Below, one piece after another: positions 10,991 to 46,508 of a stretch of DNA of 64,000 nucleotides (position 1 is its first letter; the number at the start of each line of letters is the position of its first letter). The notes under the pieces were generated by a model that worked only from the letters and a program-made list of their open reading frames with translations, did no database searches and was not told the origin of the DNA. This DNA comes from Thermoleophilaceae bacterium (lineage in GTDB: Bacteria; Actinomycetota; Thermoleophilia; Solirubrobacterales; Thermoleophilaceae): positions 124,001-188,000 of the forward strand of contig JBBDYQ010000015.1 of NCBI GenBank assembly GCA_040901445.1. Direction: 5' to 3'. The translations under genes and the position numbers were made by a program.

Positions 10991-11016
10991 TCCGGGTGGG
11001 CGCGGCCGGCCCGCTG

Positions 11017-11089
11017 GGGATTGTGCGCAACTCGTGTGCGTGGGAGGCACACGAGTTGCGCCACGCGCAACTTTGTTGCGCACAATCCC
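11017..11089 (-). repeat. Palindromic element family 1, copy 1 (73 bp)
   Basis: Outer arms GGGATTGTGCGCAAC (11017-11031) and GTTGCGCACAATCCC (11075-11089) are perfect 15-bp inverted repeats. A second perfect 15-bp pair, GCGCAACTCGTGTGC (11025-11039) with GCACACGAGTTGCGC (11047-11061), overlaps the first, and GCGCAAC-TTT-GTTGCGC (11065-11081) is a third hairpin, so several folds exclude one another. The core TGTGCGTGGGAGGCA recurs, inverted, in the copy at 36691-36763. It fills the middle of the longest gene-free gap (10978-11169), 39 bp before the asnB start. I see no gene in the rest of the gap. Confidence 0.85.
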
Positions 11090-11169
11090 GAGGGCGCTCG
11101 GAGCGGGATATGGGGCGGGCGCGCCGAACGGGGGCACGGGGCCGGCGCTTGCGGATGGTCCGGGCCGCG

Positions 11170-19437: not shown

Positions 19438-20387
19438 GCCGCGTCCTCGTGACGGGGGGCGCCGGCACCATCGGCGCGGCCGTGGTGCGCCGGCTCGTGG
19501 GCGACCCCGCCTGGGAGGTGCGGGTGTCCGACCAGCGCGAGGCCCCGGCCTGGATGCGCGAGTCCTGCGAGGTGCATACGGGCGACCTGCGCGCGCGCTC
19601 GGAAGCCGAGCGCGCGATGGAGGGCTGCACGCGCGTGATCCATCTCGCCGCCATCGTGGGCGGAATCGGCAACTTCCACAAGCTGCCCCACACGCTGCTG
19701 GAGACCAACACCGCGCTCTACAACGCCGTCTTCGCCGCCGCGCTCGCGTGCCGCACGGAGCGGCTCGTGTACGTCTCGTCCTCGATGGTGTTCGAGCGCG
19801 CCACCCAGTTCCCCACCACCGAGGAGCACGTGCACGAGGTGCCGGCGCCCGCCTCGGCGTACGGCTTCTCCAAGCTCGCCGGCGAGGTGTACTGCCGCGC
19901 CCTGCACGACGAGCACGGCCTGCCGTACACGATCTGCCGCCCCTTCAACGCCTACGGCCCCGGGGAAGCGCCCGACGACGAGCCGGGCATCGCCCACGTG
20001 GTGCCCGACCTCATCAAGAAGGTGCTCGACGGGCAGCGCCCACTGCAGGTCTTCGGCTCGGGCGAGCAGACGCGCACCCTCACCCACATCGACGACATCG
20101 CCGAGGGCGTGGTCACCGCGATGGCGCACCCCGCGGGGGAGGACGAGGACTTCAACATCTCGGCGTCGGAGGAGCTGTCGGTGGCGGAGATCGCGCGGGT
20201 GGTGTGGGAGGAGTGCGGCGGCGCGCCCGGGGACTTCGTCCTCGAGCACGTGCCGAGCTTCGCCGTGGACGTGCAGCGCCGCTGGCCGTCGGTGGAGAAG
20301 GCTCGGCGGCTGCTCGGGTTCGAGGCGCGCATCGGCGTGCGCGAGGGCATCCGCTCCACGGTCGACTGGCTCAGGACTCCGGCATGA
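19434..20387 (+). CDS. Extended SDR, nucleotide-sugar epimerase/dehydratase
   Basis: 317 aa from a TTG that overlaps the dehydrogenase stop (TTGA). LVTGGAGTIGAAVVRRL is the NAD loop; Ser in VYVSSSMVFE and Tyr-x3-Lys in YGFSKLAGEVYC form the catalytic triad; CRPFNAYGPGE and FGSGEQTRTLTHIDDIAEG are extended-SDR hallmarks. Likely a UDP-sugar 4-epimerase or 4,6-dehydratase. Being between a uronate dehydrogenase and an aminotransferase, it may act on a UDP-uronate. An ATG-only search would miss this start. Confidence 0.87.
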   Translation: MSRVLVTGGAGTIGAAVVRRLVGDPAWEVRVSDQREAPAWMRESCEVHTGDLRARSEAERAMEGCTRVIHLAAIVGGIGNFHKLPHTLLETNTALYNAVFAAALACRTERLVYVSSSMVFERATQFPTTEEHVHEVPAPASAYGFSKLAGEVYCRALHDEHGLPYTICRPFNAYGPGEAPDDEPGIAHVVPDLIKKVLDGQRPLQVFGSGEQTRTLTHIDDIAEGVVTAMAHPAGEDEDFNISASEELSVAEIARVVWEECGGAPGDFVLEHVPSFAVDVQRRWPSVEKARRLLGFEARIGVREGIRSTVDWLRTPA

Positions 20388-21454
20388 CGATTCCGCTTTT
20401 CGCCACCTCGCTTGACTCCCACCTCCCTCGTCTCACCGCCCGCCTGGCCTCGGTCGCCGAATCGGGCAAGTACATCCTCGGGCCGGAAGTGACCGCCTTC
20501 GAGGACGAGTTTGCCCGTTACCTGGGTGTCTCTCATTGCGTCGGGGTGGCCAACGGAACGGATGCACTTACGGTGGGACTTCGGGCTCTGGGCGTCTCGC
20601 CGGGAGACGAGGTGGTCGTCCCGTCGTTGACCTTCTACGCGACCGCCGAGGCGGCCGTGAACGCCGGCGCGGTGCCGGTGTTCTGCGACGTCGATCCGGA
20701 GACGCTGTGCGTCACCGCTGAGACCGTGCGGCCGGTGCTTACCGAGCGCACGAAGGCGATCGTGCCGGTGCACCTGTTCGGCAACGTCGCCCCGGTGCCG
20801 GAGCTGCGCGCGCTTGGCGTGCCGGTGCTGGAGGACGCCGCGCAGGCGGCCGGAGCCGCGCTGGGCGGGGTCCGCGCGGGCGCGCTGGGCCACGCCGCCA
20901 CGTTCTCCTTCTTCCCCTCCAAGAACCTGCCCTGCCTGGGCGACGGCGGCGCGATCACCACCGACTCCGACGAGGTGGCCGAGCGCGCCCGGCAGCTGCG
21001 CTTCCACGGCTCGGTGGACAAGACCGTGCACACGCACGTGGGATACAACTCGCGCCTGGACTCGCTGCAGGCCGCGGTGCTGCGCGAGCTGCTCCCCGAG
21101 CTCGACGGCTGGAACGAGCGCCGCCGAGCGGCCGCAGGGGCGTACGAGCGCGCGGGGCTCGGTACGCATGTCCGCCTCCCGGTGCCGGTCGACGGCGCTT
21201 CGCATGTGCACCATCTCTACGTTGTGCGGTCGGACGACCCGGACGTGCTGGTGGAGACGCTGGCGGCCGCGGGCGTGCAGGCGCGCCGCTACTACGCCAC
21301 GCCGGTGCACCGCCAGCCGGCGATGGAGCGCTACGCGGCGGGGGTGTCGCTGCCGGCCACCGAGGAGGCCGCGCGCTCCATCGTGGCGCTGCCGATGGGC
21401 CCGGAGCTCACGGATGAGCAGGTGGGGGAAGTGGTGGCGGCACTGACGCCATGA
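20384..21454 (+). CDS. DegT/DnrJ/EryC1 aminotransferase (WbpE/WlbC-like)
   Basis: 356 aa. GVANGTDALTVGLRALG, VVVPSLTFYATAEAAV and the PLP Lys in FSFFPSKNLPCLGDGG (about 185) are diagnostic; the GDGG variant after the Lys is typical of the WecE/WbpE branch. It would place an amino group on a UDP-keto-sugar, using glutamate. Last gene of the 16225-21454 run; overlaps the epimerase stop (ATGA). A covarying hairpin follows 18 nt after its stop codon. Confidence 0.92.
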   Translation: MTIPLFATSLDSHLPRLTARLASVAESGKYILGPEVTAFEDEFARYLGVSHCVGVANGTDALTVGLRALGVSPGDEVVVPSLTFYATAEAAVNAGAVPVFCDVDPETLCVTAETVRPVLTERTKAIVPVHLFGNVAPVPELRALGVPVLEDAAQAAGAALGGVRAGALGHAATFSFFPSKNLPCLGDGGAITTDSDEVAERARQLRFHGSVDKTVHTHVGYNSRLDSLQAAVLRELLPELDGWNERRRAAAGAYERAGLGTHVRLPVPVDGASHVHHLYVVRSDDPDVLVETLAAAGVQARRYYATPVHRQPAMERYAAGVSLPATEEAARSIVALPMGPELTDEQVGEVVAALTP

Positions 21455-21472: not shown

Positions 21473-21511
21473 TTCCGGAGTTCGCCACCGTATGGGTGGT
21501 CAACTCCGGAA
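21473..21511 (+). repeat. Palindromic element family 2, copy A (hairpin with GTATG loop)
   Basis: TTCCGGAGTT (21473-21482) pairs with AACTCCGGAA (21502-21511); inside, CCACC (21485-21489) pairs with GGTGG (21495-21499) around the loop GTATG. It begins 18 nt after the aminotransferase stop and ends 7 nt before the GTG at 21519. No T-run follows. The copy at 45421-45457 has the same inner stem and loop but a different outer stem. Confidence 0.8.
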
Positions 21512-21518
21512 TGCTGCC

Positions 21519-22478
21519 GTGAGTTGCCCGGCCTGCGGCGGCCCGCTCCAACCGTGGCGGCAGGTCGCGGCGGGTGAACCCTCCGACCCCAGCCTTTACT
21601 TGCTATGCCGTTGTTCCCGCTGCGGCACGGCGATCACAGAGGGCGGCGCGCCCGGAGCCGAGCTGTACGAGTCGGGCATCTACGCGCCCGGCGAGCCGCG
21701 GGCCGCCAAAGCGGTCCGCGCCATCCAGCGCGCCGTCATCGCCCAGCCCGTGCGCATGCTGCGCCGGGCCGGGGTGGCGCCCGGCGCGCGCGTGCTCGAT
21801 GCGGGGGCGGGCCGCGGCCGCCTCGTGGCCGCCCTGGGCGCGGCGGGCTTCGACGCGCGGGGCATCGAGCCGAGCGCGCGCAGCGTGGCACAGGCCGTGG
21901 CGCCGGTGGAGCAGCGCACGATTGGCGAGCACTACGACGACGGCCTCGACGCCGTGGTGCTCTGGCACGTGCTCGAGCACCTCGACGACCCGGCGGCCGC
22001 GCTGCGCCGGATCGCCGGCTGGCTGCGCCCCGGGGGCATGCTGCTGCTGGGCGTGCCAAACGCCGCCTCGCTCCAGGCGCGGATCGGCGGCCCGGGCTGG
22101 CTGCACTTCGACGCCCCGCGCCATCGCACCCACTTCACGCCCGCGGGCCTCGACGCGATCCTCGCTGCCACCGGCTTCGCGCCGGCGCGGACCCACCACC
22201 TGGTGTGGGAGCACAACCTGCACGGCATGTGGATGGCGATGCTCACCCGCCTGGGCATGCGCCCCGGCTTCCCCTTCCACCTGCTCAAGCGCAACATCGA
22301 CCCACGCCCGAAGGACCTGGCCCTGCTGGCGCTCGGCGTGCCGCTGGCGCCGCTCGCAACGGCCCTGGAGGCCGGCGCGGCCGCCGCGCGCCGCGGCGGG
22401 ACCGTGGCGATCCTGGCCCGCCGCACATCGAACTGCTCTAGGGCGGAGCCCGGCGACCTTCAGCCCAGCCCGGCGTAG
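21519..22478 (+). CDS. SAM-dependent methyltransferase with N-terminal zinc ribbon
   Basis: 319 aa from the GTG at 21519, which gives VSCPACGGPLQPW, matching the start of the similar enzyme at 5928-6848. An ATG at 21492 lies within the hairpin loop and would add nine residues; I reject it. Cys pairs SCPAC and CRCSRCG form a zinc ribbon; RVLDAGAGRGRLVAAL is the SAM loop, then WHVLEHLDDPAAALRRI and WLHFDAPRHRTHF. Probably methylates a sugar or glycan end. Convergent with, and overlapping by 19 nt, the next gene. Confidence 0.85.
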   Translation: MSCPACGGPLQPWRQVAAGEPSDPSLYLLCRCSRCGTAITEGGAPGAELYESGIYAPGEPRAAKAVRAIQRAVIAQPVRMLRRAGVAPGARVLDAGAGRGRLVAALGAAGFDARGIEPSARSVAQAVAPVEQRTIGEHYDDGLDAVVLWHVLEHLDDPAAALRRIAGWLRPGGMLLLGVPNAASLQARIGGPGWLHFDAPRHRTHFTPAGLDAILAATGFAPARTHHLVWEHNLHGMWMAMLTRLGMRPGFPFHLLKRNIDPRPKDLALLALGVPLAPLATALEAGAAAARRGGTVAILARRTSNCSRAEPGDLQPSPA

Positions 22479-36653: not shown

Positions 36654-36690
36654 GCGGGAGCCGGCGCCCCTTCCCCTCACGGCCCCGCTG

Positions 36691-36763
36691 GGGATTGTGC
36701 GCAACTCCGTTGCCTCCCACGCACATCGTGTGCTTCCCACGCAGTTCTTGTGCGCACAATCCC
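36691..36763 (+). repeat. Palindromic element family 1, copy 2 (73 bp)
   Basis: Arms GGGATTGTGCGCA (36691-36703) and TGCGCACAATCCC (36751-36763) are perfect inverted repeats; the right arm is part of the 12-bp palindrome TTGTGCGCACAA. The centre holds two TCCCACGCA units and a GCACA-TCG-TGTGC hairpin. Reversed, it shares TGTGCGTGGGAGGCA and GAGTTGCGC with copy 1. The bases just outside the left arm (CCCGCTG) are also the same in both copies. It ends 28 bp before the glycosyltransferase ATG at 36792; nothing else is visible in the 36654-36791 gap. Confidence 0.85.
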
Positions 36764-36791
36764 AAGGGGGCTGCTGCGATGATCGCGCCCC

Positions 36792-40715: not shown

Positions 40716-41732
40716 ATGCCCACCGTCGCCGTCGACACAAGCGATGCAGCCGACCCCCGCACGCGCGGATGGGGGCGGTACGTGCGCGAGCTGACCCGCG
40801 CCATGCGCGAGCTCGACCCGCCCGACCTGGACCTCCGCTTCCTCGTGCGGGACTCGCGCGGTCCCGAGCTGCTGTGGGAGCAGGTACGCCTGCCGCGACT
40901 GTTGCGGCGCGAGGGCGCCCAGGCCGTGCACGCCCCCAACTGCTTCCTGCCCCTGCGCCGCCCCTGCGCCGGGGTGGTCACGATCCACGATCTCGCGTTC
41001 GAGGACCATCCCGAGGACTTCGCCCGCAGGACCGGCTGGAAGTACCGCGCGCTCGCCCCGCGGGCCGCGCGCTCCGCGGAGCGGGTGATCTGCGTGTCGG
41101 AGCACACGCGCGAGGACGTGTGCCTCCGCTACGGCGTGGACCGCGAGCGCACGCGCGTGGTGCTCTCCGCCCCCACCCTTCCGCACACCGGCGCCGAGCC
41201 GCCCGGCGGCCCCTACCTGCTCGCCGTCGGGGACCTGCGCAGCAAGAAGAACGTGGTGCGGCTGGCCGAGGCCTTCCGCGCCCTTCACGCCGAGGGGCTG
41301 CCCCACCGCCTGGTGCTCGCGGGCATCGATGCCGGCGAGGGTCCGCGCGTGCTCGAGGCGGCCGGAGACGCGCCGGTCGAGCTCACCGGCTGGGTGGCCG
41401 ACGACCGGCTCGACGCGCTCATGCGCGGTGCCGACGCCCTGGTCCATGCCAGCCTCTACGAGGGCTTCGGGCTCGTGCTGGTCGAGGCCATGGCGCGCGG
41501 CTGCCCCGTGGTGGCCGCCGACGCCACCGTCCTGCCCGAGACCGGCGGCGACGCCGCGGCCTACTTCGATCCCCTCGACCCGGCCGACATCGCCCGCGCC
41601 ATCCGCGAGGTGGTGGAGGACCGGGCGCTGCGCGCGGCGCTGGTCGAGCGCGGCCGCGCCCGGGCGGCCGGGCTGTCGTGGGAGCGCACGGCCCGCGCCA
41701 CCCTCGACGTGTACCGGGAGCTGCTCGCGTGA
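40716..41732 (+). CDS. Glycosyltransferase family 4
   Basis: 338 aa. MPTVAVDTSDAADPRTRGWG with GWGRYVRELTRAM is the start of mannosyltransferase-like GT4 enzymes; TIHDLAFEDHPEDFARRTGW corresponds to the LHDL motif of the paralogue at 37865. Donor site: LLAVGDLRSKKNVVRLAEAF and ASLYEGFGLVLVEAMARG. First of four genes joined by GTGA/ATGA overlaps up to the large membrane protein. Sugar unknown. Confidence 0.92.
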   Translation: MPTVAVDTSDAADPRTRGWGRYVRELTRAMRELDPPDLDLRFLVRDSRGPELLWEQVRLPRLLRREGAQAVHAPNCFLPLRRPCAGVVTIHDLAFEDHPEDFARRTGWKYRALAPRAARSAERVICVSEHTREDVCLRYGVDRERTRVVLSAPTLPHTGAEPPGGPYLLAVGDLRSKKNVVRLAEAFRALHAEGLPHRLVLAGIDAGEGPRVLEAAGDAPVELTGWVADDRLDALMRGADALVHASLYEGFGLVLVEAMARGCPVVAADATVLPETGGDAAAYFDPLDPADIARAIREVVEDRALRAALVERGRARAAGLSWERTARATLDVYRELLA

Positions 41733-43452: not shown

Positions 43453-45413
43453 GCGTGCGGGCACCCGCGCGGCCGCACGACGGTGTCAGGTCGTGCAATC
43501 CAGCGGACGCTGGATTGCACGACCTGACACCGGCTACCTTGCTCGGCTGGGCCCTGGCGCTCGCCGCCGCCGCCGTCGCCGCCCTCGCGATCGCGGACGA
43601 CGCCGGCGTGGCCGGCCCTGCCGCGCTGCCCGACGTGGCGCGCGCGCTGGCCGCTTCGGTGGCCGTGCTCGGCGTCTGCGGCTTCCCGCTCGCGCGGCTG
43701 CTCGTGCCCGAGTCGATCGCCGCCTGGCGGCCGCTGCTCGTGCTCCCGCTCGGCGCCGTGGGCTGCGCACTCGCGCTCACGCTGCTCGGCTTCGCCCTGG
43801 TGCCGTTCGGCGTGTCGCTGCCGCTCGTGCTCGCCGCGGGAATCGTGGGCTGCGTGCTCACGGCGCGGCGGCCGGTCACGGGCTCGCCCGCCCCCGCCCC
43901 GCACCTGCTCGGCCTGGCCGCCGTCGGCCTGCTGATCGTGGCCGTCGCGCTCGTGCCCAGCTTCCGCTCCGGCCTGGCCACCGTCACCGGCTTCGGCTCC
44001 GACGCCCACATGGCCGCGGGGACCGCCTTCTTCCTCCAGCACGAGCACCCCACCGGCCTCGACACCGCGCTGCCGATCGACGAGGTCACACCCGCCTGGC
44101 GCTCGAAGTACCCGATCTACTACGCGCTCGGAGCCGTCTCGACCGTCGCCGGGCTGGAGACCTGGGAGACGCTGATGACCTTCGGCGCGGTGATGCTGGC
44201 GCTCGCCGGCGCGGGCTTCTTCCTGTTCGCGCACCGCACGTTCCGCGCGGGCGTGGGCGTGGCCGCGGTGGCGGCGGCGGTGGCCATCCTCGACCAGCGC
44301 GTGCTCCACCTGCCGATGCACCCGTACTACAACCAGCTCTGGGGCCTGTTCACATTGCCGTTCTCCCTGGTGTTCGCGCACCTGTGGTTCGAGGAGCGAT
44401 CGCGGCAGATGCTCGCCCTGCTCGTGCTGTTCACGCTGATGGGGGCGCTGGCCTACCCGCTCATGCTGCCCTTCCCGGGAGTGGTCATCGCCGGTGCGTG
44501 GGCGCTGGAGCAGCGCCGCCGCGGCGAGCGCGTGCTCCCGCGGATCCGCGGGCGGCGCCCGCGCTGGTGGATGGTGCCGGTGGGCATCCTGCTCGCCGTC
44601 CCGATCTTCGGCGTGCTGGAGAAGATCGGGCAGGCCGTCGCGCTGCTAGGCAACCTCGACTCCGCGCTCGAGGACTGGCAGGGTGACCTGTCCTTCCACC
44701 CCCCGGTGGGCGAGTTCCTCGCGGTGGCGGACGTGCCGGGACGTACCGCGCTCGTGGTGCTCGTCTGCCTGCTGGCGATCGCCGGCGTCCGGCGCATGCC
44801 CCGCCGGGTGGGACTGCCGCTGCTGGTCACGCTCGGCCTCGCCGGCATGGCGGGCGCCCTGTTCGGCGTGCTGAAGGACGGCCAGTACCTCTACTTCAAG
44901 ATCCTCGCCTTTGCCGGGCCGCTGATCGTGGTGGCGGCAGTCGTGGCGGTGGGATCGCTGCGCGGACGGCTGCGACCGCTGGCGGTCGCCGGCCTCGTCC
45001 TCTTCTCCGCCTCCGCGCTCCTCGGCGCGCGCGACGAGATCGAGCTCTCGTTCGACCAGCTCACCCCGCAGACCATCGAGCTGGGCGAGTGGGCGGAACG
45101 CCTCCCCCCGGGGGCGAGCATCCGCCTGGACACGCCGCCACCCGCCCAGCTGTGGGAGGCCTACATCCTCAGCGGCCGCCCGCTCGGCTCCCGCAGGCCC
45201 AACCCCCACTACCCGCACGTGCCGCGCAGCGCCGGGGCCGACTACGCGATCGACTGGAGGCGCCGCCCGGTCCCCGCGGACCGCGCCGGCCCTCCGCTGC
45301 TCACCAACTCGCGCTACCGCCTCTGGAAGCTCGACGGCAGCGGCGGCGAGGACACAACCTCCCGGCGGCAGTTCAGCGGCGGCGCGCTGGGCTCGCTGGC
45401 CGACCCGGGCTGA
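43449..45413 (+). CDS. Large polytopic membrane protein, GT-C-like, with an in-frame palindrome
   Basis: 654 aa from the ATG that overlaps the WecG stop (ATGA). Residues 11-29 are encoded by a perfect palindrome (43481-43532); the first membrane span begins just after it at ATLLGWALALAAAAV. About twelve to fourteen spans follow, with the polar loop VTGFGSDAHMAAGTAFF after the fourth and a YPIYYALG motif, then a C-terminal external domain of about 100 residues. The order matches the partial gene at 1-1444. Likely a polyprenyl-sugar-using transferase; not proven. A TTG at 43539, just after the palindrome, is an alternative start. Confidence 0.78.
   Translation: MSVRAPARPHDGVRSCNPADAGLHDLTPATLLGWALALAAAAVAALAIADDAGVAGPAALPDVARALAASVAVLGVCGFPLARLLVPESIAAWRPLLVLPLGAVGCALALTLLGFALVPFGVSLPLVLAAGIVGCVLTARRPVTGSPAPAPHLLGLAAVGLLIVAVALVPSFRSGLATVTGFGSDAHMAAGTAFFLQHEHPTGLDTALPIDEVTPAWRSKYPIYYALGAVSTVAGLETWETLMTFGAVMLALAGAGFFLFAHRTFRAGVGVAAVAAAVAILDQRVLHLPMHPYYNQLWGLFTLPFSLVFAHLWFEERSRQMLALLVLFTLMGALAYPLMLPFPGVVIAGAWALEQRRRGERVLPRIRGRRPRWWMVPVGILLAVPIFGVLEKIGQAVALLGNLDSALEDWQGDLSFHPPVGEFLAVADVPGRTALVVLVCLLAIAGVRRMPRRVGLPLLVTLGLAGMAGALFGVLKDGQYLYFKILAFAGPLIVVAAVVAVGSLRGRLRPLAVAGLVLFSASALLGARDEIELSFDQLTPQTIELGEWAERLPPGASIRLDTPPPAQLWEAYILSGRPLGSRRPNPHYPHVPRSAGADYAIDWRRRPVPADRAGPPLLTNSRYRLWKLDGSGGEDTTSRRQFSGGALGSLADPG
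43481..43532. repeat. Palindromic element family 3, 24-bp perfect arms inside a gene
   Basis: Left arm 43481-43504 and right arm 43509-43532 are exact reverse complements of 24 bases around the loop GGAC. The arm begins CGGTGTCAGGTCGTGCAATC. It is read in frame as part of the N-terminus of the membrane protein without introducing a stop. Confidence 0.85.
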
Positions 45414-45420
45414 GGAAGCG

Positions 45421-45457
45421 TGCGGACTTGACCACCGTATGGGTGCTCAAGTCCGCA
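45421..45457 (+). repeat. Palindromic element family 2, copy B, between convergent stops
   Basis: TGCGGACTTGA (45421-45431) pairs with TCAAGTCCGCA (45447-45457), a perfect 11-bp stem; inside, CACC pairs with GGTG around the same GTATG loop as copy A. It begins 8 nt after the stop of the plus-strand membrane protein, and the minus-strand glycosyltransferase stop (45447-45449) lies in its right arm. It could end transcription in both directions; no T-run is present on either side. Confidence 0.75.
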
Positions 45458-46508
45458 ACGCCGGCCGGGAAAGCGCGGCGTCCACCGCCGCGCGCAGCTT
45501 CTCGGCCGTGCGCTCGTAGGCGAACTCCTCGAGGCGCGCGCGGCCGCGGCGGATCAGCTCGCCGCGCAGGTCCTCGTCGCGCACGGCCAGCTCGAGCAGC
45601 TCGGCGACGACCGCCACGTCGTCGTCCTGCGCCCATAGCACGGCGTCGCCGCCCACCTCGGGCATGCCGCCCACCGGCCGGGCCACCACGGGCACGCCGG
45701 CGGCAAAGGCCTCCAGCAGCGGCACGCAGAACCCCTCGTGCTCGGACAGGGTGAGGAAGACGGAGGCCCCCGCGTAGCGACGACCGAGCTCCTCGTCGGA
45801 GACCGGGCCGGTCAACTGCACCCTCATTCCCCCGGCCCGGCGCGCCAGGTCGTCCAAGCGATCGCGGTAGGCAACCGACAGCGGCTCTCCCACAAGCGCC
45901 AACGACGCATCAGCAGCATGCTCCCGCTGCCACAACGCGAAGGCGCGAACCACGAGATCCTGCCGCTTGTGCGGCACGAGCCGGCCGACGCCAAGCACGG
46001 ACGGGCCGGCGTCGGCGCGGATAACCGAGCGTGCCGAAATCTCAGGCGGCTCGAACAGGATCGGCACCACCCGCACCTCCGCCGCCCCGGCCTCCCGCAA
46101 CTCGCGAGCGTTGTACCCCGACACCGCACATGCCACATCAACAGCCCGCGCATACCGCGGCAGGTGATCCCGCCCGAGCTGGCACAGCGTGGCCACGTGC
46201 GGGTGGTGGCTCCAGAGATACCTCGCAGGCGTGACGTTGTGGTACACGAGCAGCTTGCGCTGGGGCAGCTCGAGCAGCGGCTCGAGCCGCGGCGCGTAGG
46301 CGGAGTAGTGAATGAGGAGGAGGTCGTCGGGCGCGGGCTCCAGCCGCTTCAGGGGCAGCACCCCGGCGTTCAGCCGCGGCTCGATGGCGGCCGCGTGAAC
46401 CTCCCCCGCCATCCCCCAGCGCTCGAACAGCCGCCGGTACTCCAGCGCCTGCGAGGTGACCGCGTCCACCGGGCCCGCGCCCGACAGGAGCTGGTGGATG
46501 CGGCTCAC
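45447..46508 (-). CDS. Glycosyltransferase family 4
   Basis: 353 aa from a GTG at 46508 (VSRIHQLLSGAGPVDAV) overlapping the stop of the small protein (GTGA). LIHYSAYAPRLEPLLELPQR and VYHNVTPARYLWSHHPHVA are typical of GT4 proteins next to Wzm/Wzt exporters. Donor site: VLGVGRLVPHKRQDLVVRAF and LSEHEGFCVPLLEAFAAG. Last gene of the minus-strand operon Wzm-Wzt-small protein-transferase; its stop lies in a hairpin. Confidence 0.9.
   Translation of the reverse strand: MSRIHQLLSGAGPVDAVTSQALEYRRLFERWGMAGEVHAAAIEPRLNAGVLPLKRLEPAPDDLLLIHYSAYAPRLEPLLELPQRKLLVYHNVTPARYLWSHHPHVATLCQLGRDHLPRYARAVDVACAVSGYNARELREAGAAEVRVVPILFEPPEISARSVIRADAGPSVLGVGRLVPHKRQDLVVRAFALWQREHAADASLALVGEPLSVAYRDRLDDLARRAGGMRVQLTGPVSDEELGRRYAGASVFLTLSEHEGFCVPLLEAFAAGVPVVARPVGGMPEVGGDAVLWAQDDDVAVVAELLELAVRDEDLRGELIRRGRARLEEFAYERTAEKLRAAVDAALSRPALRT

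What the first reader, a model, noticed from the sequence alone, without database searches (positions are those of the whole stretch)
21473..21511. Covarying hairpin with constant GTATG loop after a stop codon (copy A)
Compared with copy B (45421-45457) the inner stem and loop CCACC-GTATG-GGTG are kept while the outer stem changes with compensation: GGAGTT/AACTCC becomes GGACTT/AAGTCC (G-C to C-G), and the neighbouring C-G pair becomes G-C. Paired changes in two copies point to selection on structure. Both copies are in the same orientation, 8-18 nt after a plus-strand stop codon. Without a T-run it is not a standard terminator; it may be a processing site, a stabilising 3' end or a protein-binding RNA.
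Basis: partly seen in the sequence, partly recalled or inferred. Interest (0 to 1): 0.6.

Follow-up and report, generated by a model that had tools for sequence, protein, structure and literature searches.

The report
Scattered palindromic repeat at gene ends
The hairpin is one copy of a short palindrome scattered between genes in soil bacteria related to Solirubrobacter, most likely a small dispersed DNA repeat that settles at gene ends rather than an RNA signal belonging to these particular genes.

Summary
The hairpin is real (17-nt arms, 5-nt loop, z = -7.2 on the + strand), but it is not just a pair. The own genome holds 26 such palindromes (covariance model R2, E<=0.01). The family is patchy: 29 of 399 genomes of the class, 28 in the own order, Solirubrobacterales. 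Of 119 non-redundant copies 59 lie between convergent genes, 44 between tandem, 7 between divergent genes, 7 in predicted ORFs, 2 at contig edges. None of 122 has a T-run. At two orthologous junctions it is present in some genomes and absent in others. Outer stems are genome-specific. Five own copies share an identical 39-mer, with flanks shared in blocks. REP tags and the RAYT transposase are missing.

Neither the same-orientation rule nor an RNA-strand signature holds. Best reading: an untagged, REP-like intergenic palindromic repeat, apparently undescribed as a family, known as a kind.

The parts
21473..21511 (+). Copy A of the palindromic repeat, written with loop GTATG; between two + strand genes
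   Evidence: R2 match 21473-21511, 50.3 bits
45421..45457 (+). Copy B of the palindromic repeat; between convergent genes
   Evidence: R2 match 45420-45458, 53.5 bits
45447..45449 (-). TGA stop codon of the minus-strand gene 46508-45447, supplied by the right arm of copy B
   Evidence: protein ends ...ALRT*
20384..21454 (+). Gene before copy A; DegT/DnrJ/EryC1-type aminotransferase
   Evidence: gene call; one search finds this Pfam family once among the 40 flanking proteins, assigned to this gene by reading its sequence
21519..22478 (+). Gene after copy A, probably a methyltransferase with an N-terminal CxxC motif; start uncertain (ATG 21492 in the loop, GTG 21519, or later)
   Evidence: Methyltransf_23 is found once among the 40 proteins, assigned by reading
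43539..45413 (+). Gene before copy B
45447..46508 (-). Convergent gene whose 3' end lies in copy B, probably a group 1 glycosyltransferase
   Evidence: Glycos_transf_1 is found once among the 40 proteins, assigned by reading

Best explanation
Copies A and B belong to a family of about 47-bp intergenic palindromes (arms of about 20 nt, loop mostly RYATG) that has been copied to new places within Solirubrobacterales genomes: an untagged, REP-like dispersed repeat. It lands or survives almost only between genes and mostly at 3' ends, where it breaks neither a reading frame nor a promoter; it even carries a TGA that can close a flanking reading frame. Shown: dispersal, the palindrome, 3'-end placement, presence/absence at orthologous junctions, genome-specific subfamilies, absence of REP tags and of a Y1 (RAYT) transposase. 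Inferred: spread as DNA, perhaps as a hairpin or cruciform, by an unidentified enzyme or by replication template switching; the latter could also correct one arm to match the other and so imitate covariation. A side effect as a two-way transcription barrier or mRNA 3' stabiliser is plausible and untested.
For: 26 places in the own genome beside unrelated genes (67 Pfam families over 40 flanking proteins, only GGDEF seen twice). Five copies with an identical 39-mer and flanks shared in blocks up to about 280 bp. Genome-specific outer stems: identity 0.85 within and 0.53 between genomes. Placement 59 convergent, 44 tandem, 7 divergent against 31.4, 46.6, 32.0 expected (p = 3e-10). Absent at the same convergent junction in G189 and G407 (gap of 0-7 bp) where Solirubrobacter CPCC 204708 has it in an 83-bp gap; present in 2 of 24 readable greA-lysS junctions. 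No orientation rule and no G.U excess on the transcribed strand. Duplicated or arrayed copies in G034 and G753.
Against: No insertion event with exact ends or target duplication was resolved. No mobilising enzyme was found. The greA-lysS copy is shared by the own genome and G006, so some copies are old or kept. Strong outer-stem pairing may also mean selection on structure. The own genome alone gives a significant lack of divergent sites (p = 0.01) but not a significant convergent excess (p = 0.09).
Confidence: 0.76

Rival explanations
1. A two-way, tail-less transcription terminator or 3'-end stabiliser kept by selection, above all between convergent genes; copies resemble each other because terminators are duplicated or converted within a genome.
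For: Very stable hairpin on both strands, half of the copies between convergent genes, median 25 nt from the nearest 3' end. In G406 an unrelated hairpin occupies the same junction. In E. coli most hairpins after stop codons are parts of intrinsic terminators (PMC6060812, passages).
Against: No T-run in 122 of 122 copies. Loop and TTGACC box are conserved in sequence, which termination does not need. Orthologous convergent genes do without it in G189 and G407. In this window most convergent pairs overlap and carry no such hairpin. Copies between greA and lysS lie inside a tandem gene pair.
Confidence: 0.15
2. A protein-binding or processing RNA element in 3' UTRs.
For: Paired changes at several positions; conserved RYATG loop in the own order.
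Against: Loop orientation is not tied to gene direction (18 vs 26, p = 0.29); G.U is not favoured over A.C on the transcribed strand (25 vs 28); the sister family in G753 has the same arms with a variable loop; no Rfam match above threshold.
Confidence: 0.05
3. A DNA site for a dimeric chromosome-organising or regulatory protein that reads TTGACC...GGTCAA.
For: That box is kept across genomes while outer stems change. The abstract of PMC2817692 (seen in the listing) says that E. coli-type REPs and BIMEs are binding sites for several proteins.
Against: Patchy distribution, 29 of 399 genomes; strong avoidance of divergent (promoter) gaps; outer stem differs from genome to genome.
Confidence: 0.04

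Closest known systems
Untagged REP-like palindromic repeats (PMC3733652 names M. tuberculosis, D. radiodurans, Bordetella, Brucella and cyanobacteria)
   Same: Short dispersed palindrome, intergenic, no terminal tag, no known transposase
   Different: Different sequence and host group; arms of about 20 nt are longer than those of the tagged families; low copy number. The sequences of those families were not compared here
CGTC-tagged REPs (PMC3733652)
   Same: Dispersed palindromes mostly between convergent and tandem genes, close to 3' ends, with no dedicated transposase
   Different: No unpaired CGTC tag (directly abutting in 1 of 119); stems of about 20 bp instead of 8-9; the paper lists five phyla for CGTC repeats, Actinomycetota not among them
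GTAG-tagged REPs with RAYT transposases
   Same: Hairpin repeats at gene ends; single copies and arrays
   Different: No GTAG tag (directly abutting in 0 of 119); no Y1 transposase in the own genome
Intrinsic (Rho-independent) terminators
   Same: Stable G+C-rich hairpin just after stop codons, often between convergent genes
   Different: No T-run; conserved dispersed sequence including the loop; absent from most orthologous junctions examined

Membership tests
REP-like dispersed palindromic repeat (broad sense) | Short palindrome (tens of bp) in many places of one genome | tested here: met
   26 places in the own genome at E<=0.01; low for a REP, usually over 100 copies per genome (abstract of PMC2817692, listing)
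REP-like dispersed palindromic repeat (broad sense) | Intergenic, mostly between convergent or tandem genes | tested here: met
   103 of 119 convergent or tandem, 7 divergent, 7 in predicted ORFs, 2 at contig edges
REP-like dispersed palindromic repeat (broad sense) | Gain and loss at orthologous places | tested here: met
   Two junctions compared; direction of change (gain or loss) not proved
GTAG REP / RAYT system | Unpaired GTAG tag at one end | tested here: not met
   0 of 119 directly abutting; 16 of 119 within 12 nt on any strand, no alignment of position
GTAG REP / RAYT system | Y1 (RAYT) transposase in the genome | tested here: not met
   0 matches in the own genome; of 14 repeat-bearing genomes only G034 has one
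CGTC REP | Unpaired CGTC tag, stem of 8-9 bp | tested here: not met
   1 of 119 directly abutting. In 13 of 119 a C precedes GTC of the stem, but those bases pair; stem about 20 bp
Intrinsic terminator | Run of T after the hairpin | tested here: not met
   TTTT within 12 nt in 0 of 122 on either side
Intrinsic terminator (tail-less) | Transcripts end at the hairpin | not testable with these tools
   Needs Term-seq
Known Rfam RNA family | Match at or above the gathering score | tested here: not met
   0 in the window; none at E<=1 for copy A; two sub-threshold hits for copy B, 21.3 and 20.5 bits against cut-offs of 99 and 58
MITE with terminal inverted repeats | Target site duplication and a related autonomous element | tested here: inconclusive
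   No repeat of the flanks was evident in the sites read; arms were never found alone in 464 kb; no systematic search for an autonomous element was made

The most novel reading that the evidence does not exclude
A family of nearly perfect 47-bp palindromes spreads in Actinomycetota as DNA hairpins without any RAYT, through an unknown enzyme or replication-linked template switching. Each genome evolves its own outer-stem 'address' around a shared TTGACC core, and the element settles at gene ends where it supplies both a stop codon and a two-way transcription barrier.
Probability: 0.25. Interest if true: 0.6.

Novelty: new member of a known kind. Interest (0 to 1): 0.36.

Why it matters
How palindromic repeats without a RAYT spread is an open question (PMC3733652 raises it for CGTC repeats). 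This family can be counted across many genera (18 of 128), shows presence/absence at orthologous junctions, and pairs genome-specific stems with a shared core, so gain, loss and the responsible enzyme can be looked for directly. It is also a caution: covariation between two copies of a palindrome need not mean RNA structure, since palindrome correction or arm exchange gives the same picture.

Tried and rejected
Rfam: no gathering match in the window, none at E<=1 for copy A, two sub-threshold hits for copy B taken as chance. RAYT association: rejected. A shared neighbouring gene: rejected. Arms as ends of a longer element: the 15-mer arm GCGGASTTGACCACC occurs 3 times in 464 kb, each time in a palindrome. 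Phages and plasmids: the sister repeat of G753 found nothing in either collection; the core 19-mer found nothing in viral contigs; a 15-mer in viral contigs gave 52 stretches, which I take as mostly chance and did not read. Literature: searches showed no paper that describes this repeat in Thermoleophilia; only their listings were seen, apart from PMC3733652 (opening part and passages) and PMC6060812 (passages).

Limits. Searches over many genomes scored few candidates per genome (16), so counts per genome there are lower bounds. G257 and G390 appear from contig names and lengths to be two assemblies of one strain, CPCC 204708, so they are not independent. The one class member outside the order (G130) rests on a single match (L112) of 85% G+C inside a predicted ORF and may be chance. 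Copies found by a covariance model favour pairing by construction; the six were found by their 13-mer alone.

Rows dropped before counts: one search left out loci L090-L099, loci repeating others (L085, L086, window) and one identical duplicate (L102), giving 122; searches also dropped L153, L154, L174 (G390 copies that repeat G257 copies), giving 119. Pair statistics use the 84 distinct 39-nt sequences of genomes with at least 4 distinct copies. At greA-lysS 27 loci were read, 24 had both anchors; the loci of G007, G004 and G029 (L212-L214) were not read; absence of the repeat in 22 was judged by eye on printed sequence, cut at 420 bases for the two longest (G019, G030), which had no R1 match.

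Full report
What was checked. Both fold far better than shuffled sequence on either strand (z from -6.1 to -7.2). The window holds no third copy: one search adds only a two-mismatch match at 41384, and 3 such matches are not rare in shuffles (11 of 100). The 3.54-Mb genome has six exact copies of the 13-mer against none of its backwards control, all six inside palindromes.

Extent of the family. Two covariance models were used, R1 from those six and R2 from 38 diverse copies. R2 finds 26 distinct places in the own genome at E<=0.01 (35 rows at E<=0.1, both strands merged by hand). R1 finds matches in 14 of 61 genomes, the own one and 60 relatives (E<=0.1). R2 finds matches at E<=1e-4 in 29 of 399 genomes of the class, 28 of them in the own order, and in 8 of 396 of the phylum, 4 of them outside the own order. 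One of these four, G753, has a rich sister family with the same kind of arms and a variable loop; 1 other of the 24 genomes of its family has a match. Named carriers are Solirubrobacter deserti CPCC 204708, Solirubrobacter sp. CPCC 204708 and a Thermoleophilaceae MAG, MGR_bin207. Four further stretches in that list come from Nitrospirota, Bacteroidetes and unplaced MAGs; among these the model matches only L093 at E<=0.001, so the others are probably chance hits of the 19-mer. Contig lengths tie G257 to S. deserti, G390 to Solirubrobacter sp. CPCC 204708 and G004 to MGR_bin207. This places the own genome in the order Solirubrobacterales, class Thermoleophilia (kinship; lineage; GTDB and NCBI ranks may differ).

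Anatomy. Beyond the 39-nt model about 4 further positions per side pair more than chance (76, 86, 68, 59 of 121 against 39, 55, 30, 36 expected), so the palindrome is about 47 bp. The loop is mostly R-Y-A-T-G. The outer stem is genome-specific (TGCGGA and TCCTGC in the own genome, TCCTGA in G027, TGTGGA in G043, CGGTCA in Solirubrobacter), while TTGACC...GGTCAA is widely shared. Identity of the outer stem is 0.85 within and 0.53 between genomes; for the inner part it is 0.77 and 0.64.

Covariation, re-examined. On the six pattern-found copies 5 of 16 pairs show two-sided changes (17 of 500 shuffles reach this); on 38 copies the covariation score is 0.485 against 0.186 (copies chosen by a model that rewards pairing). 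Shuffling arms within genomes separates the pairs. Pairs 3/37, 5/35, 7/33, 13/27 and 15/25 pair more than expected (81 vs 70.6, 77 vs 65.4, 77 vs 66.6, 83 vs 74.6, 79 vs 69.6 of 84). Pairs 8/32, 11/29, 12/28 and 17/23 do not (47 vs 44.1, 45 vs 47.8, 41 vs 42.6, 52 vs 50.5). Nine own copies have G.G there; A and B each restore the pair by changing a different arm. Arm exchange between copies, or palindrome correction by template switching, would give exactly this, so it is not evidence for RNA. The two greA-lysS copies (own genome and G006) differ mainly in the right arm and loop, without matching changes in the left arm (L023 and L039).

Placement. Genes were called with a small codon-usage caller trained on the window; it leaves a gap at about 55.7-57.2 kb and covers 86% of the 400 kb of contig C2. 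Of 119 non-redundant copies 59 are convergent, 44 tandem, 7 divergent, 7 inside predicted ORFs and 2 at contig edges; the 110 classified compare with 31.4, 46.6 and 32.0 expected from intergenic bases of 464 kb of the own genome (p = 3e-10). That background comes from one genome and is applied to all. In the own genome alone (20 of its 26 places) the numbers are 9, 10 and 1: the lack of divergent sites is significant (p = 0.01), the convergent excess is not (p = 0.09). Median distance to the nearest 3' end is 25 nt. In 13 of 171 gene 3' ends the stop lies inside the palindrome, in 9 of them at the same offset, the palindrome's TGA, as for the minus-strand gene beside copy B.

Strand tests. Loop orientation relative to tandem genes is 18 same and 26 opposite (p = 0.29). 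On the transcribed strand of those copies G.U pairs number 25 and A.C mismatches 28; outside the loosely paired columns 3 and 9. There is no sign of selection on the RNA strand. No copy of 122 has a T-run on either side.

Presence and absence. At one convergent junction in Solirubrobacter the palindrome is in G257 and G390 (83-bp gap; probably the same strain), absent in G407 (gap of 4-7 bp) and G189 (0-1 bp), replaced by an unrelated hairpin in G406, and not seen in a 483-bp gap in G327; G405 has a different neighbour. At greA-lysS it is in the own genome and in G006 and not in 22 other readable junctions. Copies come and go, and some are kept across genera.

Dispersal. Five own copies (L014-L018) have an identical 39-mer, and the repeats around them share flanks in overlapping blocks up to about 280 bp. 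The 40 genes flanking 20 own copies are unrelated. G034 has two copies 277 bp apart in a repeated stretch, and G753 an array of five units at 73-74 bp spacing.

Mechanism. Best supported is a dispersed, REP-like palindromic repeat that spreads within genomes and is tolerated at gene ends. Copy number, placement, presence/absence and subfamilies are shown; the route of spread is inferred. Against the RAYT route: no Y1 transposase in the own genome, and among the 14 repeat-bearing genomes only G034 has one. The tags that define GTAG and CGTC REPs are missing. PMC3733652 (opening part and passages) describes the same placement for REPs, mentions untagged families elsewhere and notes that CGTC repeats lack a transposase. 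PMC6060812 (passages) shows that hairpins after stop codons in E. coli are mostly parts of intrinsic terminators, which is the main support for the terminator rival.

Verdict. A real repeat family, not found in print by my searches, of a known kind; not a gene-specific RNA element.

Noticed in passing
window 43481-43532; contig C2:241538-241591: Perfect palindromes with 24- and 25-bp arms sharing GTCAGGTC(G/T)TGCA, intergenic; a separate palindrome family in the same genome.
   Followed up: partly
window 11009-11097 and 36684-36770; contig C2:76942 onwards: MITE-like elements of about 75-90 bp with terminal inverted repeats GGGGATTGTGCGCA and shared inner parts (TTGCCTCCCACG...), three in 464 kb.
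   Followed up: partly
contig C2:77599-77643, 89847-89893, 96733-96779 (L073, L074): Three copies of a related-looking palindrome, GCTGGGTCGCTTTGCCCC-GACAT-..., all between convergent genes; possibly a third subfamily with longer arms.
   Followed up: partly
L224:1424-1762 (genome G753): Tandem array of five palindromes of the sister family at 73-74 bp spacing, between convergent genes; loop sequence varies between copies of this genome while the arms are kept.
   Followed up: partly
L177 (G406), junction orthologous to L101: An unrelated perfect hairpin (ACCTAAAGGGG...CCCCTTTAGGT) occupies the same convergent junction.
   Followed up: no
window 21492-21521; L019 near 1501-1539: In copy A and in L019 the loop ATG opens a frame MGGQLR... 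into the downstream gene; the real start of these genes is uncertain.
   Followed up: no
L021, L055, L056 (and L052, L053), just after the palindrome: A shared block (TCACTGCCAACC...GCGGCGAAAGGACAC) follows palindromes of two different subfamilies, so the repeats sit in mosaics.
   Followed up: no
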